DNA of 64,000 bases from Oscillatoria sp. FACHB-1406. GTDB taxonomy: Bacteria > Cyanobacteriota > Cyanobacteriia > Cyanobacteriales > Spirulinaceae. The translations under genes were made by a program, and so were the position numbers. Positions within the stretch are counted from its first letter, which is position 1, and each line of letters starts with the position of its first letter. A model generated the notes under the pieces. It ran no database searches and had not been told where the DNA came from. It saw only the letters and a list, made by a program, of their open reading frames with translations. Shown here piece after piece: positions 2,502 to 26,625 of this stretch. Where the stretch lies: contig NZ_JACJSM010000028.1 of assembly GCF_014698145.1 (NCBI RefSeq), positions 1-64,000 of the forward strand, given 5' to 3'.

Positions 2502-5500
2502 ATGCAACAGTTTTATCGCCGCAAACTCTACGCCCTGCTCGATAATGCCGACCTCTGCAAGCAGTTGAATTGTTGGGGCGATCGGCAAGAGGAGATCGCA
2601 CAATGGTGGCAGCGGAACAAGCCCCTCGTCGAAGAGATTGCCAGTTCTTCAGATCGCGCCAACCTAGAGTTCGAGCGTAGTTTGGATACTATTCCCCTCA
2701 AGCATCCCATCAGCGGGCAAGATAGAGAGATTCAACGCAGCCACCCTGTCGAAATCGACCTCTCAACCCTCCAAAACGAGACCGATCCCCAAACAGTTTT
2801 CTGGTGGTTTTGGCGATTTTATCCAGCCCTTAAAGCTATAGCCCAGCCCGATAGCCTCCTCGAACCGCAACATCAAATTTTGCCCGACTGCCCCATCCCT
2901 AGCTACCGCGCCACGGTGTCCGCTTTAGCCGGAATTCTTGAGGATTGGGAATTGGGTGAAGCGCCTGAATATCCCTATTTACTATTATTTACCTTCTCGC
3001 CCATCCAAGAATTTATTAAAGCTTCCCGCAAATTCCTAGATTTTTGGGCGGGGTCTTACTTACTCCATTACCTGAGTGCTAAACTTTGCTGGCGCATTGC
3101 TAACTGTTACGGCCCCGACGCGATTGTTACGCCGTCGTTATGGAGTCAAGAGATTATTGATGCTTTGCTGTTGAAACAATATCCAGATTTTCGGACGACT
3201 TTTGAGAGCATTAGCAGCGATCGCAAAAATCCTCAAACTCGCTTCCAGGATAAAACCAGTGTTTCTTTATCGACAGCGGGCTTCCCCAATACGATTGTTG
3301 TTTTAATTCCCGCTTCCGAGAAGGAGAAGTTAGGAAACAATCTCGAAACTTGGTTAAAGGAAGAATGGCAGGAGATCGCCGAGAAAGTACGCGAAGGCAA
3401 CCCCGATAGTCAAGTGGAACAACTGCGCCTGGGGATTCGTGAAAGGACAATTCAACACTTGCAACAACTGCAAACTCAGAATGACTCAGACCAGCACAAT
3501 AGCTTAGAACAATTCTTAACTGAATTTGGGGGCGATCGCGAAGCCAATCGTCGCGACTTGCAAAGGTGGTGTAACATGAGTTGTTGGAAGTGGCGATCGC
3601 TCTGGAACGCACAGATCGACCATACCTGGCAGCCTTACTGGGTTGCAGTCCCCCTTGGCGATCCCGGCACACCCCTTCAAATTGAGGAAGCCGAAGAAGA
3701 TTATCGCTTCGATGAGGCGTGGCTTAAGAGTCAAGAAACCGTCGCTCAAACTCGTGCCAAGTCCCCGCCGCCGACAGAAGCGGAAAAGACGATCTACCGA
3801 ACCTTAAACGTTGGAACCTGGTGGGGATCGATTCAAGCCCGTTTGGGACAAGCGGTACGGGCGGTGAAAAACACCCGCATCTGGCAAATCCCCGCAGCGC
3901 CGGGATATCGCTCTACGGTGTCGGGACAGTCGAGCGCCCTGCATCCCGGTTTCAGTTACAGCAACCAAAGGTGCGAGGGGCGCGGTATGCCTGCCGAATC
4001 GATGCGTCTCTTTTGGCGGTTGATGGCAGAAGTTTATCGCGGACTGTTCGACGGTTCAGAGCAACTCAATGCCATAGAACTGACTAAACGAATGGCTTGG
4101 GTTTATGGCGGCGTTGCCGAGTCATTGGGGATCGATTTGAGACAATTAAATGACGAGTTAGATGAGGGAGCGACAGGCGAACTCGACTATAACCAATTGA
4201 TTCGTTTTCCCAATCTCAGTTCGATCGCGGCGGCTCGATTTGCCGAACGAGATGCGTCCCAACAATCGGGCAAATTGCGAACCTATTGGAAGATTTTGAA
4301 CGACTCGATCGCCCAACAAGAAAAAGAAGAGAAGGAAAGATTAGCTCGCCAACAAAAAGAAGGGAACCAAGGGAAACCCAAGCTGCGGCGAGAGCGCTTT
4401 GCTGCCCGCACCCGCCGCCCCTTCCAAATTCCTAAAACCGATGCAGCGATTAATTCCCAAAGGCAAGCCGGACAGGACTATAACGGTGTCATGTTTTCGA
4501 GCAAGTGGCTCGCCGAAGACTTAGGATTAGATCGCCAGGAGCGCGCTCGCCTGCGCGGTTTAGTCGATGCAGCGCACCGACATCCCAGCGTGGGCTTTGG
4601 TGAAACTTCCCCGGCGGATTGGTGGGCGATTGTTTTAGGCGATGGCGATGGTATGGGAGATTATGTGTCCGGGAAAAAACTCCATCGCTACGAGCGTTAT
4701 TTGGTTGAAACCGATGCAACTCAGTTTTTAACCGAAAACCGCTATCGCCCTGCGGATTGGGCGCGCAAACGAGAAGATTTTCTCGCCCAGTTTGGCTCCG
4801 GTAACAGCAGCGATGACAGCAGCGATGAGACAACGCTGCTAAAAACTCACAAGCGTATGGGACCAGCAACCCACATCGGTTTGAACCGCGCTCTGTTAGA
4901 TTTCTCCAATCGCCTCGTTCCCTACCTGACTCAGCAGCGGTTTTGCGGGCGGGTTATCTACAGCGGTGGCGATGATGTTATGGCAGTATTGCCCGTCGAA
5001 GATTTGCCCGAATATTTGCTCTCGCTGCAAGCCGCTTGGTGCGGCGGAGAGGATATCTATCCCACGGACGGGGACGTAAAATTCGTTTCCGAAGGCGGGT
5101 ACTGGCAGCCGCAAGCCGAACCGGACAATTTGTGCGGCTTGCCCAATCGCGCTCTGTTTACGATGGGAGAAGGGGCAACGATGAGTTTCGGCATCGTTAT
5201 CGCTCATAAAAGCGTTCCTTTACCCGTCGTTCTCAATGCCTTATGGGAGGCAGAAAGCGATCGCGCTAAAAAAATGCTCGGTTCTGCTGCGGACATTCCC
5301 AGCAAAAATGGGTTGTGCTTCCGAGTCCTCTACGGTTCCGGCAATCAACTTGAAGCGCTGCTCAAAGGAGAGTTATTGGCGGATTGGTGGCAGTGGCTCG
5401 GACATCCCAGCCCCGAATATCGCCAGGAACTTAGTTCTCTGCTCTATCGCCTCGCCGAAGATTTGCCCCGCCATGCTGTTATTACTTCCGAGCATTTCCT

Positions 5501-5741
5501 CATCGCTAAAGCAGCCCGCGCGATCGCTCTACGGCGGGAAGAATATAAAAATATCGAATACACAGTTGAGCTACTTTGTCAATGGTTAGAGCGATGGGAA
5601 AATTGGGCGAACGGTGCGAGCGATCGCGCAAAAATCCGAGCAACTAAACCTCTGGGCGCAACCTTGCCCGAACTCGCTAACCTGCTGCGTTTTTCGGCTT
5701 TCTGGCTAGACAAAATAGGTGATGATTTGACATCCGGTTGA
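2502..5741 (+). CDS. cas10: Cas10/Cmr2, large subunit of the type III-B effector
   Basis: 1079 residues. Cas10 is the signalling subunit of type III CRISPR complexes: on binding target RNA it makes cyclic oligoadenylates from ATP. The Cmr2 hallmark around FSPIQEFIKASRKFLDFWAG is at about residues 167-190. The first palm domain carries LGDGDGMGDYVSGK (about 710-725) and the second has the catalytic GGDD at 822-825 after a Ser. The active motif is intact, so cyclase activity is expected. I see no His-Asp pair in the N-terminal part (the region PIPSYRATVSALAG lacks it), so the DNase HD domain is probably absent. The gene is separated from cmr3-6 by array 1. No ribosome site precedes the ATG, which abuts heptamer repeats. 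Confidence 0.95.
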   Translation: MQQFYRRKLYALLDNADLCKQLNCWGDRQEEIAQWWQRNKPLVEEIASSSDRANLEFERSLDTIPLKHPISGQDREIQRSHPVEIDLSTLQNETDPQTVFWWFWRFYPALKAIAQPDSLLEPQHQILPDCPIPSYRATVSALAGILEDWELGEAPEYPYLLLFTFSPIQEFIKASRKFLDFWAGSYLLHYLSAKLCWRIANCYGPDAIVTPSLWSQEIIDALLLKQYPDFRTTFESISSDRKNPQTRFQDKTSVSLSTAGFPNTIVVLIPASEKEKLGNNLETWLKEEWQEIAEKVREGNPDSQVEQLRLGIRERTIQHLQQLQTQNDSDQHNSLEQFLTEFGGDREANRRDLQRWCNMSCWKWRSLWNAQIDHTWQPYWVAVPLGDPGTPLQIEEAEEDYRFDEAWLKSQETVAQTRAKSPPPTEAEKTIYRTLNVGTWWGSIQARLGQAVRAVKNTRIWQIPAAPGYRSTVSGQSSALHPGFSYSNQRCEGRGMPAESMRLFWRLMAEVYRGLFDGSEQLNAIELTKRMAWVYGGVAESLGIDLRQLNDELDEGATGELDYNQLIRFPNLSSIAAARFAERDASQQSGKLRTYWKILNDSIAQQEKEEKERLARQQKEGNQGKPKLRRERFAARTRRPFQIPKTDAAINSQRQAGQDYNGVMFSSKWLAEDLGLDRQERARLRGLVDAAHRHPSVGFGETSPADWWAIVLGDGDGMGDYVSGKKLHRYERYLVETDATQFLTENRYRPADWARKREDFLAQFGSGNSSDDSSDETTLLKTHKRMGPATHIGLNRALLDFSNRLVPYLTQQRFCGRVIYSGGDDVMAVLPVEDLPEYLLSLQAAWCGGEDIYPTDGDVKFVSEGGYWQPQAEPDNLCGLPNRALFTMGEGATMSFGIVIAHKSVPLPVVLNALWEAESDRAKKMLGSAADIPSKNGLCFRVLYGSGNQLEALLKGELLADWWQWLGHPSPEYRQELSSLLYRLAEDLPRHAVITSEHFLIAKAARAIALRREEYKNIEYTVELLCQWLERWENWANGASDRAKIRATKPLGATLPELANLLRFSAFWLDKIGDDLTSG

Positions 5742-5911: not shown

Positions 5912-6808
5912 TTGTCCATTCGATTCATTTTCCCCGAAGGGAAAAGCAATGCCGCCAAGCAATAGCGGATCATATAGTTATGTTTCCATTCGATTCATTT
6001 TCCCCGAAGGGAAAAGGGTATTGTTCAATCTGTAAAAGAGACATGACGGGTTTCCATTCGATTCATTTTCCCCGAAGGGAAAAGATGTTAGTAAGCCCAC
6101 ATATGTCTGCACTAAGTGCGGAACAGTTTCCATTCGATTCATTTTCCCCGAAGGGAAAAGACTTTCGATCGAGAATGCGCCAAACAAAGATTGAAAAAGT
6201 TTCCATTCGATTCATTTTCCCCGAAGGGAAAAGGTATAATCCGGCTGACAAAGCCAGATTCACGTGGCGAAGTTTCCATTCGATTCATTTTCCCCGAAGG
6301 GAAAAGCTGACCCAGTAACTGGGAAAGCAGTGATTGTTTATCGAGTTTCCATTCGATTCATTTTCCCCGAAGGGAAAAGGGTTCAGATCAAAGATTTCCG
6401 CACTGGGAAATTTGTGCATGGTTTCCATTCGATTCATTTTCCCCGAAGGGAAAAGAATGGGTTTTTACTACTCTGATGAACAAAAAACAGAGTTTCCATT
6501 CGATTCATTTTCCCCGAAGGGAAAAGCCTCAGACAACAATGCAGTTAGACGGTAATAGTAGTTTCCATTCGATTCATTTTCCCCGAAGGGAAAAGATTTG
6601 AAAGAACAAACCTCTCTCCAGAGGAAAAAAGTTTCCATTCGATTCATTTTCCCCGAAGGGAAAAGCGACTGTATCGCCTTTTCTTCTGCTACATTTTCCT
6701 CGTTTCCATTCGATTCATTTTCCCCGAAGGGAAAAGTTTCACTGACGGCGAAGTTTTCTCAAATACAGATGACGTTTCCATTCGATTCATTTTCCCCGAA
6801 GGGAAAAG
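5912..6808 (-). CRISPR. CRISPR array 1: 13 repeats, 12 spacers
   Basis: Repeats are 35 nt, beginning GTTTCCATTCGATTC and ending CCCCGAAGGGAAAAG on the plus strand; spacers are 33-41 nt. Repeat starts: 5912, 5982, 6050, 6126, 6199, 6272, 6345, 6421, 6492, 6561, 6631, 6702, 6774. All are identical except the one at 5912, whose first and third bases differ, as expected for the oldest, leader-distal repeat. The conserved leader at the right end means crRNA is made from the minus strand; read that way the repeat ends in ATGGAAAC, the usual 5' handle type of type III systems. The repeat contains the stem CCCC-GAA-GGGG-like core CTTTTCCC/GGGAAAAG. Confidence 0.98.
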
Positions 6809-7040
6809 GCTACCCTTCTAGAGGGCTTGTCCTGACTGCATTATACACCCCTCGATCTGAGGCTCGGCAAAAAAGGGGTAAATAATCGCTACAGATTCTC
6901 AATAAGCAGCGGAGTGACCCCCTCCAAACCCACACCCAGAGCGGTATCCGAGGCAAACCACGAAAGAATGCGGGTTTCAGCGATCTCGAACTTGCCTCAG
7001 CAAATTGAGGAAATGGAAGAAAGCGGGAGATAGAAAAGAT
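6809..7040 (-). promoter_or_regulatory. CRISPR leader 1 with promoter
   Basis: About 215 bases are nearly identical to those next to arrays 2 and 3. On the minus strand a perfect -10 TATAAT (plus positions 6840-6845) lies 19 bases after a -35-like TTGCCG (6865-6870), putting the start of transcription about 25 bases before the first repeat. Integration of new spacers is expected at the leader-repeat boundary at 6808/6809. Confidence 0.8.
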
Positions 7041-7790: not shown

Positions 7791-9934
<2,144 letters not shown>

Positions 9935-9970
9935 TGCTTAAATCAATTCTGAAAAGGAGGAGGTAAAAAA

Positions 9971-10465
9971 ATGAGTTTAGACTTAGGCGATCCTCGCGCG
10001 ATTACTCAGCCCGTTTACGAAGCTTTAAATGGTTTGCGTTCTGCTTATAACGTCGCCAGAGATAAGGGGCAGATTAAGGCAGAAGACTATCAAAAACGGC
10101 TGCGAGAGCAAAAGAGTCAAACGCAAGAACTTTATACTTTTTTAGCTACCTGGGGTTTAATGCGCTTGCGAGCCGAGGAAATGTCGCGAAATGATTGGGA
10201 AAAGCCGCCTGCGGAAATTCCACTTTTTCAAAGAGCGAAGAAAAATCAGGAAGGCAAGCGCGAAGCAATTTCTTGCTTTTTTGAATGCTTGGAGAAAGTT
10301 GCTAAAGTGAATAATTTGGCGAGCGAGAAAGGCATTGAGACGTTGAACCAGTTAAAGTCAGAAGACTACATTGGCTTAACTGGAATTGCCCTAGCTGTTG
10401 CTAAAGAGTTTAGCTTTTGGGCGGATGCTATTTATCCCGATATCAAAGGAGGCGAGAGCGAATGA
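9971..10465 (+). CDS. cmr5: Cmr5, small subunit (Cas11 group)
   Basis: 164 residues, mostly alpha-helical. Cmr5 forms the inner filament of the complex along the target RNA. Support: size, position between cmr4 and cmr6, and a helical N-terminus with a Cmr5-like LRSAYNVARDKGQ followed by LYTFLATWGLMRLRAEE. A strong ribosome site (AAGGAGGAGG) is 6-8 bases before the ATG, unlike the other cas genes here. Its stop overlaps the cmr6 start (ATGA), implying coupled translation. Confidence 0.88.
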   Translation: MSLDLGDPRAITQPVYEALNGLRSAYNVARDKGQIKAEDYQKRLREQKSQTQELYTFLATWGLMRLRAEEMSRNDWEKPPAEIPLFQRAKKNQEGKREAISCFFECLEKVAKVNNLASEKGIETLNQLKSEDYIGLTGIALAVAKEFSFWADAIYPDIKGGESE

Positions 10466-12360
10466 ATCCTAATTATCCCGGTCATCCCTACCCCCTTTGG
10501 TTGAGGGAAGACCGCCAATTCAAACCGAATAATACGGCTAGTTTTGTTGAATATTTACGCTGGATGAGACAGCCGGAGCGAGAGATCGACAGCAGCGAGC
10601 GCGTTCAAATACAAATCTCCAAAGAGAGTCAAGCTCAGAACAACTTTACTAAAGAACAAGTCCTGCATAAGGCGGTCGAAAAAGCAAGCCACTACGCTGA
10701 ATATTTTAAGCAAAAAAATCGTCAAACCGCGTTAATTGCGGGCGAAGAAAATACTTTCAGCGCGCAAGGCGTTGGGCGATCGCGCGTTGGGGGAATCCGG
10801 GGACCGGAATCGATACTTCTCCCCGCTTTCGACGCGCGAGGAATGCCTTATATTCCTTCGAGTTCGTTGCGGGGTGTCGCTCGCAGTCAAGGGGTACGCG
10901 CGATCGCTAGAGAGAGAATTGCACGTCTTGAAGAAAGCGGTCAAGAAATAACGCCTTTGGATTGGGATGCAGCCCGAGAACAAGCCGAGCGAGAGATTGC
11001 CCGTTATTTTGGAGATTTGGACGCAACTGAGGCAGATCGTGCTGGGAAAGTTATCTTTTTGGATGCCTATCCTTGCGGCAAAACTTGGGGGAATAGCGAA
11101 AAAGGATTGGCGATCGATATGGCAAATTCGATTTGGAGTTGGGAGGGAGATAATCCGAGCTATAAACCCAATCCTAATTTATTCTTATCGTTGAGAAACG
11201 TTAAATTGATTGTTGGGTTGCGTCCGGGGAAGTTTTGCGATCGCGCGACTTTTGAGAGAGTTCGCAATTGGTTAATCGAAGGCTTGCAATTGGGAATTGG
11301 CTCTCAGGTCAATTCTGGTTGCGGCGCAATGGAAATCGCCCCAACTCAATCGCTGCAACAGCCCTTCTTTCAGGTTAACTTTAGCCTCACGGGTCAACTC
11401 ATTCACAGCTATCAAAAAACGGAATGGAATGCCCAAAAAAATAAGTTTCAAACCGTTCAATCGGAAGCAGAGGTGAGAGCGATCGCGTTTAAGTCAATGC
11501 TGCGCTACTGGTTTCGGACTTGGGCGCGCGGAGTCTTACCCGCTGAGGTAATCCGCGATCGCCTCGAACCGCAGTTATTTGGCTCGATTCAGCCTCAAAT
11601 TTGGGGTTGGTTAACTTGTCGCGTTGAGGAAACGTCACATCTTCGCCCTCGCACCCAATTGCAGGGGAAAGAAGGAAACTGCTTGCAGCAACAAGGGATT
11701 CTCAAACTGAGTTACTCCCCTCAAGCGCCCGAATTCCGGTATGACGCGATCGCGCGCCTGTTTGTCAATCTAACCTGGCTGATGTTCCATCTCGGCGGTG
11801 TCGGACAGGGAGCGAGGCGACCTCTTTATTCTCGCCAAAATCGAACCGATCCCAAACCGCCTTGGTATCGGGGTTGCGACTTGAGAGCAACCCGTATCGA
11901 ACCCTCAGAAATTGCCTGGGAACGACCAGAAACCCTCGAACGCTTCGCCGAGCAGTTTCAACAAAGAGTCCGGGAATTCTACTGTGCCTTGGGGGAATTA
12001 GCAGGCGCTTTTGAAGGGTGTTTGCCCTTACCCGTTCGTGGAGAGGCGATCGCGCAGTTTTCTCGCATTGTCGTCTGTACTGGGGATGCGATCGCCGATA
12101 AACCCTTTGCTTTAGGAATATTGCACCAACAAGCTCATTTAGGAAACGGTCGATACGATCCCGACCTCTGCGGCGATGCCAACAGTAACCCCTCTCCCAT
12201 TTGGATTGCCAATTTGGGTCAGTATCAGGTTGTTACCGTTTTCGATAGCGATCGTGAAAAACGTCAATTGTTCCTCAACAACCTACAACAAAATGCGACA
12301 AACTATCAAATCGTCTGGAACAACCCAAGCGTCGCAAACTCGCTCGAAACAATTAACTAA
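10462..12360 (+). CDS. cmr6: Cmr6-Cmr1 fusion RAMP protein
   Basis: 632 residues, twice the length of ordinary Cmr6. I chose the ATG at 10462 overlapping the cmr5 stop. Residues 1 to about 290 form a Cmr6 unit: FDARGMPYIPSSSLRGVARS near 130, and the closing Gly-rich loop GIGSQVNSGCGAM near 275. Residues from about 300 begin a second RAMP domain with Cmr1 features: SMLRYWFRTWARG at 346-357 followed by LFGS, and a Gly/Arg loop GGVGQGARRP near 445. Cmr6 and Cmr1 cap the 3' end of the crRNA in the complex. No separate cmr1 gene is in the window, so this fusion probably supplies both. Assignment of the C-terminal half rests on motif resemblance. Confidence 0.85.
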   Translation: MNPNYPGHPYPLWLREDRQFKPNNTASFVEYLRWMRQPEREIDSSERVQIQISKESQAQNNFTKEQVLHKAVEKASHYAEYFKQKNRQTALIAGEENTFSAQGVGRSRVGGIRGPESILLPAFDARGMPYIPSSSLRGVARSQGVRAIARERIARLEESGQEITPLDWDAAREQAEREIARYFGDLDATEADRAGKVIFLDAYPCGKTWGNSEKGLAIDMANSIWSWEGDNPSYKPNPNLFLSLRNVKLIVGLRPGKFCDRATFERVRNWLIEGLQLGIGSQVNSGCGAMEIAPTQSLQQPFFQVNFSLTGQLIHSYQKTEWNAQKNKFQTVQSEAEVRAIAFKSMLRYWFRTWARGVLPAEVIRDRLEPQLFGSIQPQIWGWLTCRVEETSHLRPRTQLQGKEGNCLQQQGILKLSYSPQAPEFRYDAIARLFVNLTWLMFHLGGVGQGARRPLYSRQNRTDPKPPWYRGCDLRATRIEPSEIAWERPETLERFAEQFQQRVREFYCALGELAGAFEGCLPLPVRGEAIAQFSRIVVCTGDAIADKPFALGILHQQAHLGNGRYDPDLCGDANSNPSPIWIANLGQYQVVTVFDSDREKRQLFLNNLQQNATNYQIVWNNPSVANSLETIN

Positions 12361-12408: not shown

Positions 12409-14307
12409 ATGACTCTTCTCATCGCTAACATTGGTACTTCTGACCTTGCCGTTAAGATTGACAACTATTACGTTCCTATTGGCTTCGATCGCAACGAACC
12501 CAATATCGAGGAAGCTGAAGCACAACTTAATACTGAAGAGGAGACAGCCTGGAAAAACCGCTCCTTGATTTCTTCTAAACTGGCTAAATTATTAGGATTA
12601 ACCGTCGAGCGCCCTACTTTTCGCCAACTTACCCAAAGCTTGCTCTCGGCTTACCAAAAAGACCCAGAAACTTGGCACGAGCGTCTTCGTCCGGCACGGA
12701 TTTTTAGTGTGGTTCAAACAGCACATGAGCGATTTAAAGTCAATCAAATTTATATCTTTGTAACCAATCAACCGGAGATTGTTCAAAGCAAACCCAATCC
12801 GGGGTATGGTACGGACAGCATTCATCTCTACGAAATTCTCAAGCTTTGGTTCGAGCGACATTTTTCCCATCGACTCGCCTTACAATTTGTTGTAATTCCC
12901 CCAGAAATTAGCGCGATCGATATTGATGGACTGTTCAATGAATACTATAAATTTTTCTTGCAGCGAGAGCCTCAAGAACTGACTCTAATTAGCGTTAAAG
13001 GAGGAACGCCGCAGATGCAAACAGCGCTGCGAGTACAAGCCATTTCTTCCAATCTCACCCAGCAAATTTATCTCGAACCGCGCCTCTCGATTGCAGAATT
13101 ATTAGCAGGGCAGCCTTCAGCTTGTCAGACAATTTCTTATTGGCGCTATCAACGCCTTCAAAAATACCAATCTGTTAAGCAACTGTTGAAGCAATGGGAC
13201 TTTGATGGAGCGCGAACCCTGCTTCAAGAATGGCAAGTTACTTTGCAAAATATTGCCAAAGATTTGGAGTCGAGCAATGCGCCGGATTTACCCGCCAGTC
13301 AAGAAACAATTTCAGCTTGTGTTAAAGCGCTGAATATGGCAATTGGTTATTTAAACTTTGATTCTACCTTTGCAAAATCTGAATATAAGAGCGATTCCGA
13401 GCGTCTGAAAGCTTTTAAACCTATCGTTGATAATTACCCCCTAAAACCGGGAGAGAAAAATAAACATTATCCCAAATTGCTTAATCTTTATACGCAATGC
13501 TGTCTTTTTTGGCATAGCGATCGCATTGCCGACTTCCTGACGCGCATCGGCTTGTTTTATGAAGAAACGTTGCACGAGCTAATTTATGCTCTTGGGGGCG
13601 ATCTGTATTTTGACAGACCGCGCCCTCGCGGCGATTGGGTATTGAATACCAATGATTTATTAAATAAAAATTTCGCTTTGGCTCAAAAGTTTTACCAAAT
13701 TGAGAAAGTGATGGGAAAAGAAAAGGGAAAAGAGTTAGCTTTAGTGTCACAATTGAATAAAGGGAATTGCATTATAGGCGATCGATGGAAGAAACCATTG
13801 TCAAAACAGTTTAAGCTTCCCGGTCGCATTACCAAACGCAATTTTGCGATCGCGCTTCTGGAAACGTCCCCTTCATTATCAAGAAAGCAGTGCGATACAA
13901 CAGCAAAATCGCTTCTCTACGGGTTTAAATCCCTTGACTACTGGTGTCTCAAGCGGAATAAGCTCGTTCATGGCGCTAGAGGCATTTCTAAGCAACGAAT
14001 GAAAGAAGTTCTTCAAGAAGATCGTGAGTTTTATGCGAAAGAACAACCGAAAGGAACTTGGATCGATTACGATATTAAAAATTCGGTTGGCGATGCGAGC
14101 GAACACGATAAGCTGCTCGATGTCATGACGGAGATTAGTCGTTTGACCCTAGAACTTATCGGAACCCCCGAACAGCGATCGCTCCTGCGCGAAAATCCCG
14201 GCTACTTCGAGCCGCAGAACGAAGTTTACTATATCTATTCAGAGATTGGCAATTGGGTGGTGCAGAACCTGGAAATTGACATCCTCACCGCCCTAAAAGT
14301 GCGGTGA
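12409..14307 (+). CDS. CARF-HEPN ancillary ribonuclease (Csm6/Csx1-like)
   Basis: 632 residues. Proteins of this group bind cyclic oligoadenylate made by Cas10 through a CARF domain and then cut RNA with a HEPN domain. The N-terminal Rossmann-like strand LLIANIGTSDLAV and the loop SVKGGTPQMQTA (195-206) fit a CARF ligand pocket. The HEPN signature Rx4H is RNKLVH at residues 516-521, preceded by a helical region with a further basic stretch. The order CARF then HEPN and the place directly after cmr6-cmr1 support the role. The two domains are separated by a long helical middle (about 240-480). The exact subfamily is not certain. Confidence 0.75.
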   Translation: MTLLIANIGTSDLAVKIDNYYVPIGFDRNEPNIEEAEAQLNTEEETAWKNRSLISSKLAKLLGLTVERPTFRQLTQSLLSAYQKDPETWHERLRPARIFSVVQTAHERFKVNQIYIFVTNQPEIVQSKPNPGYGTDSIHLYEILKLWFERHFSHRLALQFVVIPPEISAIDIDGLFNEYYKFFLQREPQELTLISVKGGTPQMQTALRVQAISSNLTQQIYLEPRLSIAELLAGQPSACQTISYWRYQRLQKYQSVKQLLKQWDFDGARTLLQEWQVTLQNIAKDLESSNAPDLPASQETISACVKALNMAIGYLNFDSTFAKSEYKSDSERLKAFKPIVDNYPLKPGEKNKHYPKLLNLYTQCCLFWHSDRIADFLTRIGLFYEETLHELIYALGGDLYFDRPRPRGDWVLNTNDLLNKNFALAQKFYQIEKVMGKEKGKELALVSQLNKGNCIIGDRWKKPLSKQFKLPGRITKRNFAIALLETSPSLSRKQCDTTAKSLLYGFKSLDYWCLKRNKLVHGARGISKQRMKEVLQEDREFYAKEQPKGTWIDYDIKNSVGDASEHDKLLDVMTEISRLTLELIGTPEQRSLLRENPGYFEPQNEVYYIYSEIGNWVVQNLEIDILTALKVR

Positions 14308-17324: not shown

Positions 17325-17356
17325 AACCCTCACTTTGGCTTCTGCTCGTGAGGGTT
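17325..17356 (-). terminator. Terminator for the array 2 transcript
   Basis: Inverted repeat AACCCTCAC / GTGAGGGTT. Read on the minus strand the stem is followed by ATTTTTACC, so it should stop the array transcript. Its right arm overlaps the first bases of the oldest repeat. Confidence 0.6.
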
Positions 17357-17602
17357 TTCATTCGATTCATTTTCCCCGAAGGGAAAAGCAGCCAAATGCA
17401 GTGTGAACAAGCAGACAAAGACCAGTTTCCATTCGATTCATTTTCCCCGAAGGGAAAAGATGAAGCAAAACAGCGATGGGAGTGCGGAAATCCGTTTCCA
17501 TTCGATTCATTTTCCCCGAAGGGAAAAGTGGCAATTTCAGTTTTAGCTGTACACCAGATGAACGCGGGTTTCCATTCGATTCATTTTCCCCGAAGGGAAA
17601 AG
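17354..17602 (-). CRISPR. CRISPR array 2: 4 repeats, 3 spacers
   Basis: Same 35-nt repeat as array 1. Starts: 17354, 17425, 17494, 17568; spacers 34-39 nt. The repeat at 17354 has one change (GTTTTC for GTTTCC) and is the leader-distal end. The leader is on the right, so transcription is on the minus strand. Confidence 0.97.
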
Positions 17603-17905
17603 GCTACCCTTCTAGAAGGCTTGCCCTGACTGCATTATACACCCCTCGATCTGAGGCTCGGCAAAAAGGGGGGAAATAATCGCCACAGATTCTCAATAAG
17701 CAGCAGAGTGACCCCCTCCAAACCCAGACCCAGAGCGGTATCCGAGGCAAACCACGAAAGAATGCGGGTTTCAGCGATCTCGAACTTGCCTCAGCAAATT
17801 GAGGAAATGAAAGAAATAAAGAGGAAAACAAGATTAACGACGATTTATAAATCTGGAGCATTAAATTTAAGCGAATTTAGGCTTTTGGCTTTTCTAACTT
17901 CGCTG
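17603..17905 (-). promoter_or_regulatory. CRISPR leader 2 with promoter
   Basis: Matches leader 1 over about 215 bases and leader 3 over about 300. Minus-strand TATAAT is at 17634-17639 and the -35-like TTGCCG at 17659-17664. The leader also fills most of the space upstream of the TPR gene on the plus strand, so the TPR promoter must lie in or just beyond it. Confidence 0.8.
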
Positions 17906-18032
17906 CTGGCGATTGGGTCTGCTACGATTTTCGCTTCGGTGAGAGATTTAGGGAGAGGGCGACAAAAGTGACTTGCTCCCTCCCACGAGTCTCTCTTACA
18001 ATTACGATGATATAAATTCTCCAAAATTTAAC

Positions 18033-20360
18033 ATGGGAGCGCGCACGAACGATGGTTCTTCAAGCCAGCGGCTGTTTGCAGAGCTAGAGATCGATCTCGA
18101 CAATGTTCCTCTCGAATATCTCTCTCATTATACGGCAGTTCAATATTATCTAGTCCTCGAAGACGAACCCCCGCGCGATGCAGAGAAGCTGGAACGGGGA
18201 CGGCGATATCTAGAGACATTTTACCATCTGTGCGAGGTAGAAGAATGGAAAAAAGTCTCCCAAGTTCTTTTGGCTCGCCTCGATACTTCAACTCAAGACG
18301 CACTTCATTATCAACTCAGTCTTTGGGGTTACTACCATCAACAAATTGAGTTATACGAAAAGCTTTTAGATAAGTTAAGTGCAGAAGCCAATGCTTTGTG
18401 CTTGAGCGGCTTAGGTTGCGCTCACTATTCTTTAGGAAATTATCAACAAGCTACGGATTATTTCGATCGCGCGGCTGAGATTGCTCGGCAAACGGGCAAT
18501 TCGATGACAGAAATTTCGGTACTGGCTGGACTGGGTTCGATTCAACACGAACTGGGGAACTATTCGCGATCGCTGCAATTGTATCAACAATGTTTGCAAG
18601 CAGCCCGGAGTCAAGGTTTTCTCTCTTTAGAAGGCTTTATCGAAAGCGAACTGGGCAACCTCTACGAAGCGTTGGGAGAGTACGATCGCGCCCTAGAATG
18701 CCACCAGCACCATTTAGAGATTGCCACAACCCTAGGAGAAATCGAATATGAAAGCAAAATTTTCGGGAATTTAGGCAGTATTTACCATTCTTTAGGAGAT
18801 TTCCAACGCGCTCTCTCCTACCACCAACAGCATCTCGCTCTCGCTCGCGAGATTGAGGACAGACGAGGAGAAGGAAAAGCCTTAGCGGGTTTGGGCAGTG
18901 CTGGGTATGCCTTGGGAAACTACCCTCAAGCCCTCGATTACTTCGAGCAGTATCGCACCATCGCCCGCGAAACGGGCGACCGACAATCAGAAGCGAATGC
19001 CTTGGGGAGTTTGGGCAATGTCTGCGCTGCGTTAGGGGACTACCCTCAAGCCCTCGATTACCACCAAAAACATTTAGACATCGCACGAACATTAGGCAAT
19101 AAGCAAGGTGAAAGCCAAGCATTCGCTAACCTGGGCAACGCCTATCTCGCTCTGGGACAATATGCCGAAGCCCTCGATTGTTACCATCGAGATGAGGAGA
19201 TTTCTCGCATTTTAGGCGATCGTCGCGGTCGAGCTAGATCGGCGAACAATCTCGGCAGTCTTTATTACGTTCGAGGCGATTACGATCGCGCTTTGGAGAA
19301 CCACCGCGCCCAATTAGAACTCTCCCGCCAAATTCAAGACCGCGCTGGGGAAGGGATGGCGCTGAACGGTTTGGGCAATGCTTGCCATTGTTTGGGTCAG
19401 TATCCTCAATCGATTGAATACCATCAGGCGCACCTGGAGCTAGCCCGGGAAATCGGCGATCTCGCCGGTCAAGGTTTGGCACTCATTGGTTTGGGTGGCA
19501 GCTATCACTGCATCGGGGCAAACGAGCGCGCGATGGCGTGCTACCAGGAAGGTTCGCGCCTCATCTCCGACAAAGGCGATCCCGCTCTCCAAGCTCGAAT
19601 CCAGGGCAATATGGGGGTGATTTACACCGTTCGAGGACAGTACGCAGAGGCAATGGAAGCTCAGCAAACTTGTTTGGCGATTGCACGCCAAATTAAGAGT
19701 CCTTCTCTAGAAAACAGAGCTTTGGGTAACATCGCTCAAATTTATCAATATCAAGGACAGTACCAGCAAGCAATCTCGTACCGGCAACAGCAATTGACCA
19801 TTGCACGCTCTCTTGGCGATCGCTTCAGCGAAGGGGCAGCGCTGGGCGGACTGGGTGACGCTTGGTATTCTTTAGAGGAGGTGGATGTAGCGATCGATTA
19901 CTACCAGCAAGAATTAGTCCTCGCCCGAGAGATCGGAGATCGTGCAGAAGAAGGAACAGCTTTGGGGAGTTTGGGTAATGCCTGCGATGTTTTAGGAGAA
20001 TACGAACAAGCGATTGTTCATTACCAACAGTGTTTGGAGATTGCCCGCGACATCGGCGACTTATTAATGGAAGCACAAACTTTAGATAACTTAGCCGATA
20101 CGTTAATTAAGCTGGGACGATATTCGGAAGCTCTGACATTTTTGCAGCGCGCGATCTCGCTTTGCCAACAAATTGGCGTTCGCTCGACTGAAGCCTTTGC
20201 GCTCAAAACTCTGGCAATTCTTTATTACGAACAAGGAGAGTTATCCGAAGCACTCGAATACTGCGATCGCGCTTTATCGCTCTCTACAGAATTAGGAATT
20301 GCGCTCCTTGAGGAATGTCAGGCGCTTAAGGATTCGTGGGTTATGAGTTTTGAGTTATAA
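18033..20360 (+). CDS. Large TPR-repeat protein
   Basis: 775 residues from the ATG at 18033; an in-frame TTG at 17973 is less likely. After an N-terminal region of about 115 residues, roughly 16 tandem repeats of about 40 residues fill the protein. The consensus is GLGxAxxxLGxYxxALxYxxxxLxIAR, the LGN/Rapsyn-like class of tetratricopeptide repeats, which form a superhelix for binding proteins. There is no enzyme domain or signal peptide. In cyanobacteria this repeat type is often the C-terminal sensor of STAND ATPases. Here it stands alone, flanked by arrays 2 and 3 and divergent from the HTH-STAND gene. Confidence 0.9.
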   Translation: MGARTNDGSSSQRLFAELEIDLDNVPLEYLSHYTAVQYYLVLEDEPPRDAEKLERGRRYLETFYHLCEVEEWKKVSQVLLARLDTSTQDALHYQLSLWGYYHQQIELYEKLLDKLSAEANALCLSGLGCAHYSLGNYQQATDYFDRAAEIARQTGNSMTEISVLAGLGSIQHELGNYSRSLQLYQQCLQAARSQGFLSLEGFIESELGNLYEALGEYDRALECHQHHLEIATTLGEIEYESKIFGNLGSIYHSLGDFQRALSYHQQHLALAREIEDRRGEGKALAGLGSAGYALGNYPQALDYFEQYRTIARETGDRQSEANALGSLGNVCAALGDYPQALDYHQKHLDIARTLGNKQGESQAFANLGNAYLALGQYAEALDCYHRDEEISRILGDRRGRARSANNLGSLYYVRGDYDRALENHRAQLELSRQIQDRAGEGMALNGLGNACHCLGQYPQSIEYHQAHLELAREIGDLAGQGLALIGLGGSYHCIGANERAMACYQEGSRLISDKGDPALQARIQGNMGVIYTVRGQYAEAMEAQQTCLAIARQIKSPSLENRALGNIAQIYQYQGQYQQAISYRQQQLTIARSLGDRFSEGAALGGLGDAWYSLEEVDVAIDYYQQELVLAREIGDRAEEGTALGSLGNACDVLGEYEQAIVHYQQCLEIARDIGDLLMEAQTLDNLADTLIKLGRYSEALTFLQRAISLCQQIGVRSTEAFALKTLAILYYEQGELSEALEYCDRALSLSTELGIALLEECQALKDSWVMSFEL

Positions 20361-20543: not shown

Positions 20544-21084
20544 GTTTCCATTCGATTCATTTTCCCCGAAGGGAAAAGCTATTTTCGCTCTAGTGGCTAT
20601 CGCAGTTGGTTGTTTCCATTCGATTCATTTTCCCCGAAGGGAAAAGAATTAACAGCTGAAGAGGTTGCTGCCCTCAGCAACCAGTTTCCATTCGATTCAT
20701 TTTCCCCGAAGGGAAAAGTATGCACTGTAAACCAAAGAAAAGTTGGTATAACAATGGTTAACAGTTTCCATTCGATTCATTTTCCCCGAAGGGAAAAGAG
20801 GGGTTTGAAAAGGGATTGAAGCAACAGTCGCGTTTCCATTCGATTCATTTTCCCCGAAGGGAAAAGATTGGACATGGATGCAACCATGTATGGCACAAAC
20901 CGGTTTCCATTCGATTCATTTTCCCCGAAGGGAAAAGCAATGTTTGCGGGCCATCTCAGACCATAAAGCCGTCTACGGGTTTCCATTCGATTCATTTTCC
21001 CCGAAGGGAAAAGAGTCCCCTAGTCTTAGAGGGGAGGTATACAGTAGTGGTTTCCATTCGATTCATTTTCCCCGAAGGGAAAAG
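20544..21084 (-). CRISPR. CRISPR array 3: 8 repeats, 7 spacers
   Basis: Same repeat as arrays 1 and 2. Starts: 20544, 20612, 20684, 20764, 20832, 20903, 20979, 21050. Spacers are 33-45 nt; the 45-nt one at 20719-20763 is the longest in the window. All eight repeats are perfect, including the leader-distal one, which suggests a younger array or a recent end deletion. Confidence 0.98.
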
Positions 21085-21380
21085 GCTACCCTTCTAGAGG
21101 GCTTGTCCTGACTGCATTATACACCCCTCGATCTGAGGCTCGGCAAAAAAGGGGTAAATAATCGCCACAGATTCTCAATAAGCAGCAAAGTGACCCCCTC
21201 CAAACCCAGACCCAGAGCGGTATCCGAGGCAAACCACGAAAGAATGCGGGTTTCAGCGATCTCGAACTTGCCTCAGCAAATTGAGTAAATGGAAGAAATA
21301 AAGAGTAAAACAAGATTAAAAACGATTTATAAATCTGGAGCATTAAATTTAAGCGAATTCAGGCTTTTGGCTTTTTTGAC
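21085..21380 (-). promoter_or_regulatory. CRISPR leader 3 with promoter
   Basis: Nearly identical to leader 2 to about 21375, then diverges. TATAAT is at 21116-21121 and the -35-like TTGCCG at 21141-21146 (minus strand). Confidence 0.8.
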
Positions 21381-21928: not shown

Positions 21929-21963
21929 GTTTCCATTCAATTCACTTTCCGACCAGCGGAAAG
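21929..21963. repeat. Orphan CRISPR repeat of a second type
   Basis: A single 35-base unit starting GTTTCCATTCAATTCAC and ending GACCAGCGGAAAG. Length and first 9 bases equal those of the local repeat, but the stem differs (CTTTCC...GGAAAG with a different core). It lies 545 bases beyond leader 3 with no second copy. Probably the last trace of an array belonging to a related system. Confidence 0.6.
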
Positions 21964-21966
21964 AAG

Positions 21967-22314: not shown

Positions 22315-22641
22315 TCATTCCGAACTCAGTTCTGGCTTAGGAACGTCGAAACAGGGAATCTGCCAAAGCGATTCGGGAATTTCTTCAAAATGTTCGAGCA
22401 AAAAGTCCATTAACGCTAAATGGCGTAGGTCGTTGCTGGTGGGGCGGCGGTAGTAACGTCCTCGACGAAACCAACCGCGCGTAGTTGAAAGCGAGCGCGA
22501 GCAAATTTCTGCCATTTGTTCGTAGGTCACTCCCCATTTGCGATAAAACTTTTGAGGAGTCATACCCAACTCGCACTGACTGTAGAGGGCAATTAAACGG
22601 AGTTCGCGATCGTCCAGAGAACGAGGATTACTCATCGTCAT
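22315..22641 (-). CDS. HTH-like hypothetical protein
   Basis: About 108 residues starting MTMSNPRSLDDRELRL. The phrase FYRKWGVTYEQMAEICSRSL with the basic GWFRRGRYYRRP resembles a helix-turn-helix with a recognition arm. The start overlaps the stop of the upstream gene by about 14 bases, so the two are translated together. A longer open frame to 22755 lies inside that gene and is not used. Confidence 0.65.
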   Translation of the reverse strand: MTMSNPRSLDDRELRLIALYSQCELGMTPQKFYRKWGVTYEQMAEICSRSLSTTRGWFRRGRYYRRPTSNDLRHLALMDFLLEHFEEIPESLWQIPCFDVPKPELSSE

Positions 22642-23170
22642 AACGCTCCAAATCGTTCTCCCAAGCCGTATCGACAACGCACCACCGTGCAGACGGCGAA
22701 TCTGGGTCGAGCAGAAGCAGGTAGCACCACATCCAGCGACAACGTTCGGGGGCATAGCCGTAAAATCGTCCGATAACGATTCCCCAGTCGTTTAAGCCTG
22801 TCTCTTCATCCTCTAAAGGAATCCAACGCAGGACTTCGCCGAATCGATAACGCGAGGGTTGCGCTTCGAGAAAGAAAGCAGGGGAGTCAGCAGGCAAAGG
22901 AACGGCATTACTCATTGCGAGGATACCGGATAGTTCTTCGGCGCGACCCATTTGGACGGCATACAAATACGCAGTCAGCCAATCGCAGTTTAGATTGGCG
23001 GCAAAATGCTTAATCAGCAAAGCCGTTAAGCTGAATAGCTGTTGAAAATCGCATTCCTTTGCTGTCGTCCGAGCTAACTTTTGCATCAAGGCGATCGCGC
23101 CAAAATCTTCAAGCGCTTTGAGATATCCCGGCGGTTCGGTTTGGAGAATTTTTCGCTGGTAGTCAAACAT
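22628..23170 (-). CDS. Hypothetical protein, first of a two-gene operon
   Basis: 180 residues, starting MFDYQRKILQTEPPGYLKAL. Helical N-terminal two thirds; the C-terminal part is Trp- and Asp-rich (WGIVIGRFYGYAPERCRWMW). No motif is recognised. It is the fourth gene in the window whose ATG follows directly after TAACTC-type heptamers with no ribosome site. Function unknown. Confidence 0.6.
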   Translation of the reverse strand: MFDYQRKILQTEPPGYLKALEDFGAIALMQKLARTTAKECDFQQLFSLTALLIKHFAANLNCDWLTAYLYAVQMGRAEELSGILAMSNAVPLPADSPAFFLEAQPSRYRFGEVLRWIPLEDEETGLNDWGIVIGRFYGYAPERCRWMWCYLLLLDPDSPSARWCVVDTAWENDLERYDDE

Positions 23171-23747: not shown

Positions 23748-24029
23748 TCAGACAATGAAGGCTGCATCCGCGATCGCAAACTCCGGTAGAACGCCCAGAA
23801 TTTTGACATCGCGCCGACAGCGTTCTGAAAGCGGATAGAAGCGGAGTTGGTCTTGCTTGAGATCGAGCAATTTGGACAGTTTTTGGGCTAACTTCGAGTA
23901 TTGCTGCTCGTCTGCGATGACCTCAAACACCGATTTTTGTATCCGCAGTCCATAAGCTTCGAGTAACTTCGCCACCTTCGTGCGACGGCTGTCATTTGTA
24001 ATGTCGTAACAAATGAGATAGAGGGTCAT
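23748..24029 (-). CDS. cas2: Cas2, spacer-integration subunit
   Basis: 93 residues. Cas2 dimers join two Cas1 dimers in the complex that inserts spacers. The N-terminal ferredoxin-like strand LYLICYDITND with the conserved Asp, then RRTKVAKLLEAYGLRIQKSVFE, is diagnostic. I chose the ATG at 24029 over an upstream in-frame start at 24092 because the protein then begins at the canonical MTLYLICYD. It follows rt-cas1 by about 100 bases on the same strand, as one adaptation unit. Confidence 0.93.
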   Translation of the reverse strand: MTLYLICYDITNDSRRTKVAKLLEAYGLRIQKSVFEVIADEQQYSKLAQKLSKLLDLKQDQLRFYPLSERCRRDVKILGVLPEFAIADAAFIV

Positions 24030-24128: not shown

Positions 24129-26144
24129 CTACGCTTCCCAAAACATGGGTCGATAGCCGTCGGTATCCCCCATCACGCAGGAAACATACTCGCGCACCTG
24201 TAACTCCAAGCAGCGACGCAAGCTAACTTTGTAGCCGGTATAGGGATGGGTCATTTCCTCGAGTAATTTTTCTTCCCAATGCTTGAGAAATTTCTTGAGA
24301 GCATCAACGTGCAGATATACGCCACCGCGCTCGTCAGCCGGTGTAAAGTCCTCTGGCGTAAAGATTTTTCGGTTAACCAGATAAGCAACCAAAGAATCAA
24401 CCGCTCGAGCGCGAAATTCTTCCACCAAGTCCGACACTAAGGCAGGATGATTGTCTCGGGGAACGTGCAGGTTCCCAAAGTGAGTATGCAAGCCGATCGC
24501 TTCGACGAACGAATGAACATTTTGGCTTAAGAGGGTGTAGCCTAGGCTCAGTAGGCTGTTAATCGGGTCGGTGGGAGGACGCTTCGTGCGGCGCTCGAAG
24601 CTAAACGTTTCCTCAAAAAAAGATCCCAGCCCTTGGAAGTAAACGGTTGCAGCTTTCCCCTCGTAACCGCGCAACGCATCCATCGATTCAGCTAGGGGGA
24701 GGTCGTTCATTAACTGGGCAATATTCTCTATGGCTTGCTTGGCTTTTTCGCTGCGGCGGCGGCGATTCAAACGCATCAATAAGACGCGCGAGTTATGCAG
24801 CTTTGCCCGCACGATCGCTTCAGCTTGCGCTCGGCAAAACTCTGGCTCTTCAGCACGTCGGACTTGTTGAGCTAAGTAGTTAACTTTAGCTTGCCCTTCC
24901 GTTTCCAAGCGCCCGAAATAGCGTCCCCGTTGGGAGAGATACATCACGGGAATGCGGCGGGAGAGGGCGAGGCGTACCGCACCGTGGGAGACATTGCAGC
25001 AGCCAAATAGAACGACGTGACTGACGCGGTTAACGGGGATTTGACAGCGCAGTTCGCCCCCTTGAAAGACGCGAAATTGGGAGTTCTGCGCTTTGAGATA
25101 GGAACCTTGTTCGGTGATGTAAAGGGTAGTCATGGATTCGATGAAGAAATGATGGGGGTTGGATGCAACCGCAGGGGTTGTTTTGGAGACGGTTGAAAGC
25201 GTGCAGGTTTTGGGGGGTTGGGAGAGAAAGGAATGGATGCAAATCGCTCGCGGGCGGGCGGGTGTCCCCGAAGGAGTGAGGGGCAGATTTCCGGCGTTAG
25301 GAAGAACCGGCGGCGGTGCAAAAACCTGTCCTTGTTGGAATTGGTAGCCGAGAAAACTGAACTCGCGCTCCGGTGATACAATTTGCGTTTTCTGGGGTTG
25401 GAGCTTGAGATAAATATTCGCCAACCAAGTTTCGATTTGGTCGAGGGTGCGTTCGGCAGCCGCGAGACTGTTACAGGCAATGGCAAAGTCATCGCCGTAA
25501 CGAACGAGGTTGATGTCGTGCCGCAAACAGGCGCGATCGAATTCGTTTAGGTACAGATTGGCAAGCGCGCCGGAGAGAACGGCTCCTTGCAGCACGCCTT
25601 GTTTGGGATTAAGGCGACGACCTTTGACGACAATCCCCGATTCAAGTTGTTGTTTGACCAGTTGGACGACAACTGAATCGAGGTGCAGGCGTTCTACTGC
25701 GGCCAGCAGTAGCGCCCAGCAGAGATTGTCGAAGAAGTTTTCGATGTCCGATTTGATAATCCAAGTCGGTTGGTACTGGTAGTAGAAGTGCAGGTGTTTG
25801 ACAGCCGTTTGAATCCCGCGACCGGGGCGATAAGCATAGCTACAGTCAGCAAATTCTTCTTCGAGGGGCAGGTAAAGCTCTTCGAGGAGATACCGTTGGA
25901 CGACGCGATCGCGCACTGTTGGAATTCCCAACAAGCGCTTGCCACCGTTATGTTTTTGCAAGTAAAATCCCCGCGCCGGACTGGGTTTGTAGCTTTCGCG
26001 CTCTAGCTGGGACTGGAGAATTAAGAGTTGTTCTTCTTTAACTCCAGAAAACAAGTCAACTGTAATACCGTCAATTCCCGCACTGCGACTTCCCCGACGT
26101 ACCAGTTCCCAAGCGTACTTGAGGTCGGCAACAGTAAATCGCAT
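24129..26144 (-). CDS. cas1: Reverse transcriptase-Cas1 fusion
   Basis: 671 residues. RT-Cas1 fusions allow type III systems to take spacers from RNA through reverse transcription. Residues 1 to about 280 form a group II-like RT: motif A IKSDIENFFDN, RxxQG-like NPKQGVLQGAVLSG, and the active site YGDD at 216-219. A Pro- and Ser-rich linker covers about 280-337. Cas1 begins at M338 (TLYITEQGSYLK) and has the metal ligands in GYEGKAAT (Glu), FGNLHVPRD (His) and SDLVEEFRA (acidic). All key residues are present, so both activities are expected. Unlike some relatives it has no Cas6 domain at the N-terminus. Confidence 0.96.
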   Translation of the reverse strand: MRFTVADLKYAWELVRRGSRSAGIDGITVDLFSGVKEEQLLILQSQLERESYKPSPARGFYLQKHNGGKRLLGIPTVRDRVVQRYLLEELYLPLEEEFADCSYAYRPGRGIQTAVKHLHFYYQYQPTWIIKSDIENFFDNLCWALLLAAVERLHLDSVVVQLVKQQLESGIVVKGRRLNPKQGVLQGAVLSGALANLYLNEFDRACLRHDINLVRYGDDFAIACNSLAAAERTLDQIETWLANIYLKLQPQKTQIVSPEREFSFLGYQFQQGQVFAPPPVLPNAGNLPLTPSGTPARPRAICIHSFLSQPPKTCTLSTVSKTTPAVASNPHHFFIESMTTLYITEQGSYLKAQNSQFRVFQGGELRCQIPVNRVSHVVLFGCCNVSHGAVRLALSRRIPVMYLSQRGRYFGRLETEGQAKVNYLAQQVRRAEEPEFCRAQAEAIVRAKLHNSRVLLMRLNRRRRSEKAKQAIENIAQLMNDLPLAESMDALRGYEGKAATVYFQGLGSFFEETFSFERRTKRPPTDPINSLLSLGYTLLSQNVHSFVEAIGLHTHFGNLHVPRDNHPALVSDLVEEFRARAVDSLVAYLVNRKIFTPEDFTPADERGGVYLHVDALKKFLKHWEEKLLEEMTHPYTGYKVSLRRCLELQVREYVSCVMGDTDGYRPMFWEA

Positions 26145-26625
26145 CAGTTATTTAGGGTTATGGATTGTGGGTTTTAGGGTTTAAGTTTTAGCGGTTAATG
26201 CTCGCCCCATCCCGTGTCTCTTTCTACAAATTGCCTCCAAATGCTGTGTTGTGATTTCAATCTTTGCAAGGAGGTATTTGAGTCCGTACTTGAGTTGAAA
26301 AAAAGAACCTGATTTCGTAGCTGAGTTCATGCCCGAGCTTGCCCCTCCTATTTCCCGTGGCGTGAAGAGGCAATTTTGGTAAAAGATCGTTTCCGAGGCT
26401 CCATATCCTCTTTAAGCCGTTGCGATCCGCGAACCGAACGATCTCTGCACAACTTGTAAAATCCTCAATTATTTCTACGCGCGAAAACGTCAGATGGTGT
26501 AGGGGCGCGATCCTCTTCCATTGAATAACGTGGCATAATCTGTTGAATGGCGATCGGACTCTTGCTTCTATAACTCTTATTCTGTAGGATTTTGAGCTTA
26601 TTTGGAGTCTTGGAGGGTAGCACCA
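26145..26625. other. Non-coding stretch upstream of rt-cas1
   Basis: No convincing gene. It must hold the rt-cas1 promoter. GATCGC-containing sites and a short AT-rich run near 26150-26180 are visible, nothing more. Confidence 0.4.

What the first reader, a model, noticed from the sequence alone, without database searches (positions are those of the whole stretch)
24129..26144. Intact RT-Cas1 in a type III-B locus: probable RNA spacer acquisition
Both the YGDD of the reverse transcriptase (216-219) and the Cas1 metal ligands are present, with cas2 next to it. RT-Cas1 with type III systems is known to acquire spacers from RNA in some bacteria. The RT and Cas1 are joined by a low-complexity linker (about 280-337) and there is no Cas6 domain.
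Basis: partly seen in the sequence, partly recalled or inferred. Interest (0 to 1): 0.65.

Follow-up and report, generated by a model that had tools for sequence, protein, structure and literature searches.

The report
Cyanobacterial RT-Cas1 with conserved promoter switch
A cyanobacterial plasmid carries an apparently intact enzyme of the known kind that writes pieces of RNA into a bacterium's CRISPR memory, and its promoter bears a conserved four-box DNA signal that across cyanobacteria goes with one family of sensor-like regulator genes, which suggests that this memory-writing is switched by a dedicated sensor.

Summary
Observation confirmed: 24129-26144 (-) is an intact fusion of a group-II-like reverse transcriptase and Cas1, with cas2 beside it and no Cas6 domain. 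The four residues shown by mutation to matter in the Thiomicrospira enzyme are present. It fits the cyanobacteria-only RT-Cas1 clade already described (RT-CRISPR-3), so the enzyme is a new member of a known kind. RNA uptake is plausible but not shown: no spacer source was found, and spacer strand bias does not separate RNA from DNA capture. The effector is a complete Cas6-less type III-B of the Synechocystis kind (III-Bv).

New as far as I could read: in this clade RT-Cas1 is flanked, usually divergently, by a gene whose helix-turn-helix is fused to a STAND NTPase, DUF4384 or TPR-CHAT (29 of 35 loci within 7 kb, 0.3 expected; 0 of 12 in the other cyanobacterial RT clade; 0 of 32 solo cas1). 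A four-box direct-repeat element lies upstream of RT-Cas1, occurs once in this genome (26274-26326), and its box type tracks the HTH type. Likeliest reading: a sensor-type regulator controls RT-Cas1. Binding, direction of control and signal are untested.

The parts
24129..26144 (-). RT-Cas1 fusion, 671 aa: RT about residues 1-275 (26144-25320), linker 276-337 (25319-25134), Cas1 338-671 (25133-24132)
23748..24029 (-). cas2 (93 aa from the likely ATG; the open frame extends to 24092)
26274..26326 (-). four-box direct-repeat element upstream of RT-Cas1 (ACTCAGCTACG AAATCAGGTTC ... ACTCAAGTACG GACTCAAATAC; spacing 12-19-12), operator candidate; only copy in the genome
15795..17258 (-). HTH ('FLTQG' type) - NB-ARC (STAND) protein, 487 aa; member of the gene family that flanks RT-Cas1 in this clade; candidate regulator
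17973..20360 (+). TPR protein, 795 aa (TTG start); counterpart of the TPR gene that follows HTH-NB-ARC in related loci
22628..23170 (-). P180: conserved small protein of unknown function next to cas2
22315..22635 (-). P108: small protein overlapping P180, conserved near the cas1/cas2 genes of RT-Cas1 loci
20544..21084 (-). CRISPR array C: 8 repeats, 7 spacers; crRNA strand is -
21085..21375 (-). leader of array C, closely similar to the other two leaders
17354..17602 (-). CRISPR array B: 4 repeats, 3 spacers
17603..17893 (-). leader of array B
5912..6808 (-). CRISPR array A: 13 repeats, 12 spacers, between cmr2 and cmr3
6809..7022 (-). leader of array A
2502..5741 (+). cas10/cmr2 with a GGDD motif (type III-B)
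7860..9050 (+). cmr3
9032..9934 (+). cmr4
9971..10465 (+). cmr5
10462..12360 (+). Cmr6-like protein with a Cmr1-like second half (fusion as on Synechocystis pSYSA); open frame starts at 10417
12409..14307 (+). CARF-HEPN Csx1/Csm6-type ancillary nuclease

Best explanation
This is a complete, probably active spacer-acquisition module of the cyanobacterial RT-Cas1 clade (RT-Cas1 plus Cas2) on a mobilizable-plasmid-like contig. It feeds three CRISPR arrays used by a Cas6-less type III-B (III-Bv-like) effector. RT-Cas1 with Cas2 takes up RNA, and probably also DNA, makes cDNA with the RT domain and joins it to the leader-proximal repeat with the Cas1 domain. The transcribed spacers guide Cmr to matching RNA, and Cas10 signalling activates the CARF-HEPN nuclease. 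Expression of RT-Cas1 is controlled by a sensor-type regulator: a helix-turn-helix domain fused to a STAND NTPase (here HTH-NB-ARC, with a TPR partner) binds four in-phase direct repeats upstream of RT-Cas1 and changes its transcription on sensing a signal, perhaps infection. Shown by sequence: the genes, the residues, the arrays, the gene association and the conserved element. Inferred: RNA uptake, DNA binding by the HTH protein, activation versus repression, the inducing signal, and Cas6-independent crRNA maturation by RNase E.
For: Enzyme: domains and closest solved structure. Residues whose mutation abolished or impaired activity in Thiomicrospira (RT D540, RT-helix K574, Cas1 R835, H873; PMC8102632) map to D218, K252, R522 and H560, all invariant in 27 homologues. 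Effector: cmr2-cmr3-cmr4-cmr5-cmr6/1 and CARF-HEPN; same gene order and fused RAMP protein as the pSYSA III-Bv locus (38% identity). Repeat has a 5' hairpin and a 16-nt tail, like pSYSA and unlike the Cas6-type repeats of other loci; the only Cas6 is on another contig. Regulator: the HTH gene lies within 7 kb of clade-3 RT-Cas1 in 29 of 35 loci (26 divergent and within 2.5 kb upstream) against 0.32 expected, 0 of 12 clade-5 RT-Cas1, 0 of 32 solo cas1. Element: best scores mostly 14-20 against shuffle maxima of 9.5-15 in the loci, present also where the HTH gene is not adjacent, including this window and both Gloeothece plasmids; single copy in this genome. Box type follows HTH type in 12 of 12 (ACTCAG with FLTQG) and 21 of 28 scored loci (ACTCATA with the other type); both labels change 4 times on the RT-Cas1 tree, concordantly.
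Against: No spacer matches phages, plasmids or other parts of the genome, and three exact patterns found nothing in viral contigs, so RNA origin is untested. Spacer T-over-A bias on the crRNA strand is significant when pooled (p 5e-6), but the RT-less pSYSA array shows a bias of similar size, so it speaks for RNA targeting rather than RNA uptake. The independent-pairs test has only 3-4 pairs (p 0.25), labels were set by eye, and where HTH gene and element are adjacent they could be swapped together as one cassette. No sigma-70-like promoter was found near the element. In this window the HTH gene is 7 kb from RT-Cas1.
Confidence: 0.6

Rival explanations
1. An ordinary RT-Cas1 module of the known cyanobacterial clade. 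The HTH-STAND/CHAT neighbour is an independent defence or signalling gene that travels in the same island, and the four-box element regulates only that gene.
For: STAND and TPR-CHAT genes are common in cyanobacterial defence regions (general knowledge); the neighbours' domains vary; in most loci the element is also the divergent gene's upstream region.
Against: The element stays upstream of RT-Cas1 where the HTH gene is elsewhere or not found (window, L047, L048, L010, L013). The association is absent for solo cas1 and clade-5 RT-Cas1. The element is not found upstream of the HTH-NB-ARC gene in this window.
Confidence: 0.3
2. RT-Cas1 here acquires spacers mainly from DNA; the RT helps complete or repair captured ends and RNA is not a main source.
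For: Marinomonas RT-Cas1 acquires from both RNA and DNA (PMC5576922, PMC11014452; abstracts); no RNA source was found for a cyanobacterial RT-Cas1 system in Arthrospira (PMC5513706); no source found here.
Against: All RT residues known to matter for cDNA synthesis are conserved across the clade, so RT activity is under selection.
Confidence: 0.3
3. The module is decaying: arrays are short, RT-Cas1 is far from the effector, and acquisition no longer happens.
For: Three short arrays (13, 4 and 8 repeats); decay of cas10 and cmr6 genes is reported for the Arthrospira III-B-RT locus (PMC5513706); an RT-Cas1 with a stop codon exists in a relative (L018).
Against: RT-Cas1, cas2 and all cmr genes are open and keep key residues; leaders and repeats are nearly identical between arrays.
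Confidence: 0.12

Closest known systems
RT-CRISPR-3 clade of Toro et al. 2017 (PMC5541045); probably the cyanobacterial branch 5 of Silas et al. 2017 (PMC5513706; Arthrospira platensis)
   Same: Cyanobacteria-only RT-Cas1 fusion without Cas6, with type III effectors; many relatives carry a second cas1 nearby as Toro describes
   Different: In this window and its nearest kin RT-Cas1 is followed directly by cas2 and there is no second cas1 at the locus; no mention of a linked regulator or promoter element found in the parts of these papers that I read or searched
Marinomonas mediterranea and Thiomicrospira Cas6-RT-Cas1 (PMC11014452, PMC8102632; structure 7KFT)
   Same: RT and Cas1 domains with the same tested residues; type III-B in Marinomonas
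   Different: No Cas6 domain here; III-Bv-like effector; Marinomonas CRISPR expression is under a histidine kinase/response regulator (PMC8523701), not a STAND gene
Synechocystis PCC 6803 pSYSA type III-Bv locus; RNase E matures its crRNA (Behler 2018, known here only as a reference in PMC9978351)
   Same: Gene order cmr2-3-4-5-fused RAMP, no Cas6, repeat with 5' hairpin and long tail, plasmid location
   Different: Synechocystis uses plain Cas1-Cas2 with Csx18; here the adaptation enzyme is RT-Cas1
CRISPR adaptation linked to HTH, NACHT, CHAT and RVT genes in Altae-Tran et al. 2023 (PMC10910872, Fig. 6B legend)
   Same: The legend lists these domain names among novel associations of adaptation modules
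   Different: Figure content is not held, so whether it is this association is unknown; its text on adaptation-linked genes mentions neither it nor an operator
Csa3a, regulator of adaptation genes in Sulfolobus (PMC4333418)
   Same: A dedicated transcription factor next to spacer-acquisition genes
   Different: Unrelated MarR-like protein in a type I-A archaeal system
MalT-type STAND transcription activators (general knowledge)
   Same: STAND NTPase coupled to a DNA-binding domain and tandem direct-repeat sites
   Different: HTH is N-terminal and of XRE/Cro type here; no binding shown

Membership tests
RT-Cas1 fusion (CRISPR-associated RT) | Single polypeptide with RT and Cas1 domains | tested here: met
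RT-Cas1 fusion (CRISPR-associated RT) | Intact RT catalytic triad and Cas1 active site | tested here: met
   D133, D218, D219, K252; E495, H560, D572, E575, R522
RT-Cas1 fusion (CRISPR-associated RT) | cas2, CRISPR array and type III effector in the same locus | tested here: met
RT-Cas1 that acquires RNA spacers | RT-dependent uptake of RNA-derived spacers | not testable with these tools
   needs a spacer-acquisition assay
RT-CRISPR-3 (Toro) | Groups with the cyanobacterial RT-Cas1 set apart from the other cyanobacterial clade | tested here: met
Type III-Bv | cmr2-cmr3-cmr4-cmr5-fused cmr6/1, no Cas6 at the locus | tested here: met
Type III-Bv | crRNA maturation by RNase E | not testable with these tools
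   only the repeat architecture agrees
STAND-type transcription regulator of RT-Cas1 | HTH fused to STAND NTPase | tested here: met
   window 15795-17258: AAA_22 and NB-ARC above cut-off, HTH_31 weak
STAND-type transcription regulator of RT-Cas1 | Conserved site at the target promoter, type-matched to the HTH | tested here: met
STAND-type transcription regulator of RT-Cas1 | Binds the site and changes transcription | not testable with these tools
   needs footprint and reporter assays
Craspase-like TPR-CHAT (type III-E) | TPR-CHAT protease paired with a gRAMP effector | tested here: not met
   TPR-CHAT occurs beside RT-Cas1 in relatives, but this window has a TPR protein without CHAT and a multi-subunit Cmr effector

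The most novel reading that the evidence does not exclude
Cyanobacterial RT-Cas1 is an inducible memory writer. A STAND or TPR-CHAT sensor senses infection and, through its HTH and a four-box operator, switches on RT-Cas1, so that spacers are taken from RNA mainly while a threat is being transcribed.
Probability: 0.3. Interest if true: 0.8.

Novelty: new variant of a known kind. Interest (0 to 1): 0.6.

Why it matters
How RT-Cas1 systems avoid writing the cell's own abundant RNAs into memory, and why no RNA source has been found for their spacers in cyanobacteria, are open questions. A dedicated sensor that gates the enzyme would offer one answer, and the element at 26274-26326 makes it directly testable. 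Coupling RT-Cas1 to a Cas6-less III-Bv effector also shows how freely this adaptation module pairs with effectors.

Tried and rejected
AlphaFold model of RT-Cas1 from 19 sequences was poor (mean pLDDT 53, pTM 0.28), so no fold search was run. Spacer searches in phages, plasmids, own genome and three exact patterns in viral contigs found nothing. Spacer strand bias as a mark of RNA capture was rejected because the RT-less pSYSA array shows it too. Open-frame counts of spacers were uninformative. The HTH partner as a general CRISPR neighbour was rejected: none near 32 solo cas1. Sigma-70 scan upstream of RT-Cas1 found nothing. Circularity of contig C28 was not established: no terminal overlap. 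The four-box scan gives high scores also in the 11-bp iteron region 29147-29421, with spacing 11-22-11 rather than 12-19-12, so these were not counted. The independent-pairs test is too small to be decisive.

Full report
What is there. The window lies on a 73.7-kb contig (C28) of a 5.47-Mb genome whose best matches are cyanobacterial. The contig has a MobA-type relaxase, a NikA-like mobilization protein and a phage-type integrase, so a mobilizable plasmid is likely, though circularity was not shown. The reported gene, 24129-26144 (-), encodes 671 residues with an RT domain and a Cas1 domain and is related to the Cas6-RT-Cas1 of 7KFT over 560 residues. cas2 follows directly.

Is the enzyme intact? 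YGDD is at 216-219. Using the printed alignment (chain index is the paper's number plus 3), the residues tested in Thiomicrospira (RT D540, RT-helix K574, Cas1 R835 and H873; PMC8102632) correspond to D218, K252, R522 and H560. All are invariant among 27 homologues, as are D133, E495 and E575. The linker is variable in length but holds a conserved S-x-PPK-x-C stretch, so 'low complexity' is only partly right.

Which family? The protein is 72% identical to RT-Cas1 proteins on two Gloeothece verrucosa plasmids, 55-67% to most relatives in other cyanobacteria, and about 35% to a second cyanobacterial set in which RT and cas1 can be separate genes. The tree separates the two sets and places the window with Gloeothece (98/95) and with genome G003 (100/100). 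This fits the RT-CRISPR-3 clade of Toro et al.. Arthrospira sequences could not be included, so the link to Silas branch 5 is by description only. The enzyme is therefore a new member of a known kind.

The rest of the system. cmr2, cmr3, cmr4, cmr5, a Cmr6/Cmr1-like fusion and a CARF-HEPN nuclease lie at 2502-14307. The same order and the fused RAMP protein (38% identity) are found on Synechocystis pSYSA, the III-Bv system. Three arrays with one repeat (13, 4 and 8 copies) are all in this window, each with a closely similar leader at its high-coordinate end, so the crRNA strand is taken as minus. The repeat folds into a 5' hairpin with a 16-nt tail, like pSYSA and unlike the Cas6-type repeats, in which the hairpin abuts the last eight nucleotides. 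The only Cas6 in the genome is at another locus. Cas6-independent maturation is therefore likely, but inferred.

Do the spacers show RNA origin? No. The 22 spacers match nothing in phages, plasmids or elsewhere in the genome, and three exact patterns found nothing in viral contigs. Over 628 spacers from 19 RT-Cas1 loci the crRNA strand has more T than A (238 spacers with A over T, 349 with T over A, p 5e-6), as expected if crRNAs are antisense to messages. The RT-less pSYSA array shows a bias of similar size (-0.058 per nt), so this says nothing about RNA capture.

A partner gene. In loci retrieved only by RT-Cas1, the gene upstream and divergent usually begins with a conserved ~75-residue XRE/Cro-like HTH fused to a STAND NTPase (about 490 or 1200 aa), to DUF4384 (often followed by a TPR-CHAT protein), or to TPR-CHAT itself. 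In 390 cyanobacterial genomes, 29 of 35 clade-3 RT-Cas1 places have this HTH within 7 kb, 26 of them divergent and within 2.5 kb upstream, against 0.32 expected. None of 12 clade-5 places has it, and in the closest relatives none of 32 solo cas1 genes has it. Caveats: the HTH list was cut at about E 1e-20, so weaker hits are missing on both sides, and the model was built from RT-Cas1 neighbours. Here the member is HTH-NB-ARC at 15795-17258, with a TPR gene at 17973-20360, 7 kb from RT-Cas1.

A promoter element. The RT-Cas1 upstream regions hold four boxes (consensus ACTCA or AGTCA) with spacing 12-(19 to 21)-12. Most scored loci reach 14-20, against shuffle maxima of 9.5-15; 42 of 61 loci, some of them duplicates, reach 14. 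The element is present where no HTH gene is adjacent, including this window (26274-26326, score 18) and both Gloeothece plasmids, and was not found for a clade-5 RT or Tistrella. The pattern occurs once in the 5.47-Mb genome. Loci with the 'FLTQG' HTH have ACTCAG boxes (12 of 12 scored) and the others mostly ACTCATA (21 of 28; 4 differ, 3 tie). Genomes G003 and G004 add two FLTQG loci with ACTCAG-type boxes, those of G003 in reverse orientation. Both labels change four times on the tree and agree in all 3-4 independent pairs, too few for significance (p 0.25). Labels were assigned by eye, and adjacent gene and element may be exchanged together.

Interpretation. The simplest reading is that the HTH protein controls RT-Cas1 through the four boxes, with the STAND or TPR part as sensor. 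Whether it activates or represses, and what it senses, is open. STAND regulators such as MalT are the nearest working model (general knowledge). Known regulators of CRISPR adaptation or of RT-Cas1 hosts are unrelated (PMC4333418; PMC8523701). The legend of Fig. 6B in PMC10910872 names HTH, CHAT, NACHT and RVT among adaptation-linked genes, so the gene association may be partly known. In the papers I searched I found no report of the promoter element.

Noticed in passing
window 29147-29421: Two blocks of about 11-bp direct repeats (CTGAGTAAT/CTGAGCAAT type) next to the mobC-like gene at 28555-28974: iteron-like, possibly a plasmid replication or transfer origin.
   Followed up: partly
window 22315-23170 (P108/P180): Two overlapping small genes conserved beside the cas1/cas2 genes of many RT-Cas1 loci; P108 occurs in 6 of 19 relatives, in 4 of the 5 with full-length clade-3 RT-Cas1. 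No family match; possible adaptation partners.
   Followed up: partly
L045 9676-18779 (genome contig C3): A second type III-B locus with plain cas1-cas2 in the same genome; its repeat shares the 3' end GAATGGAAAC and the 5' hairpin layout with the window's repeat.
   Followed up: partly
window 21926-21971: A single degenerate repeat-like sequence (about 61% to the array repeat) between array C and P108, perhaps a relic of another array.
   Followed up: no
L015 6468-9884: In Dulcicalothrix desertica the RT-Cas1-linked HTH is fused directly to TPR-CHAT, a caspase-like protease architecture.
   Followed up: partly
L018 10001-11971: RT-Cas1 with an in-frame stop codon in a Leptolyngbya MAG, so some copies of the clade are broken.
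   Followed up: no
window 15476-15815 and 34580-34833: Short tandem direct repeats of 7-8 bp (TTCGTAA and CTCTCCCC types) between genes.
   Followed up: no
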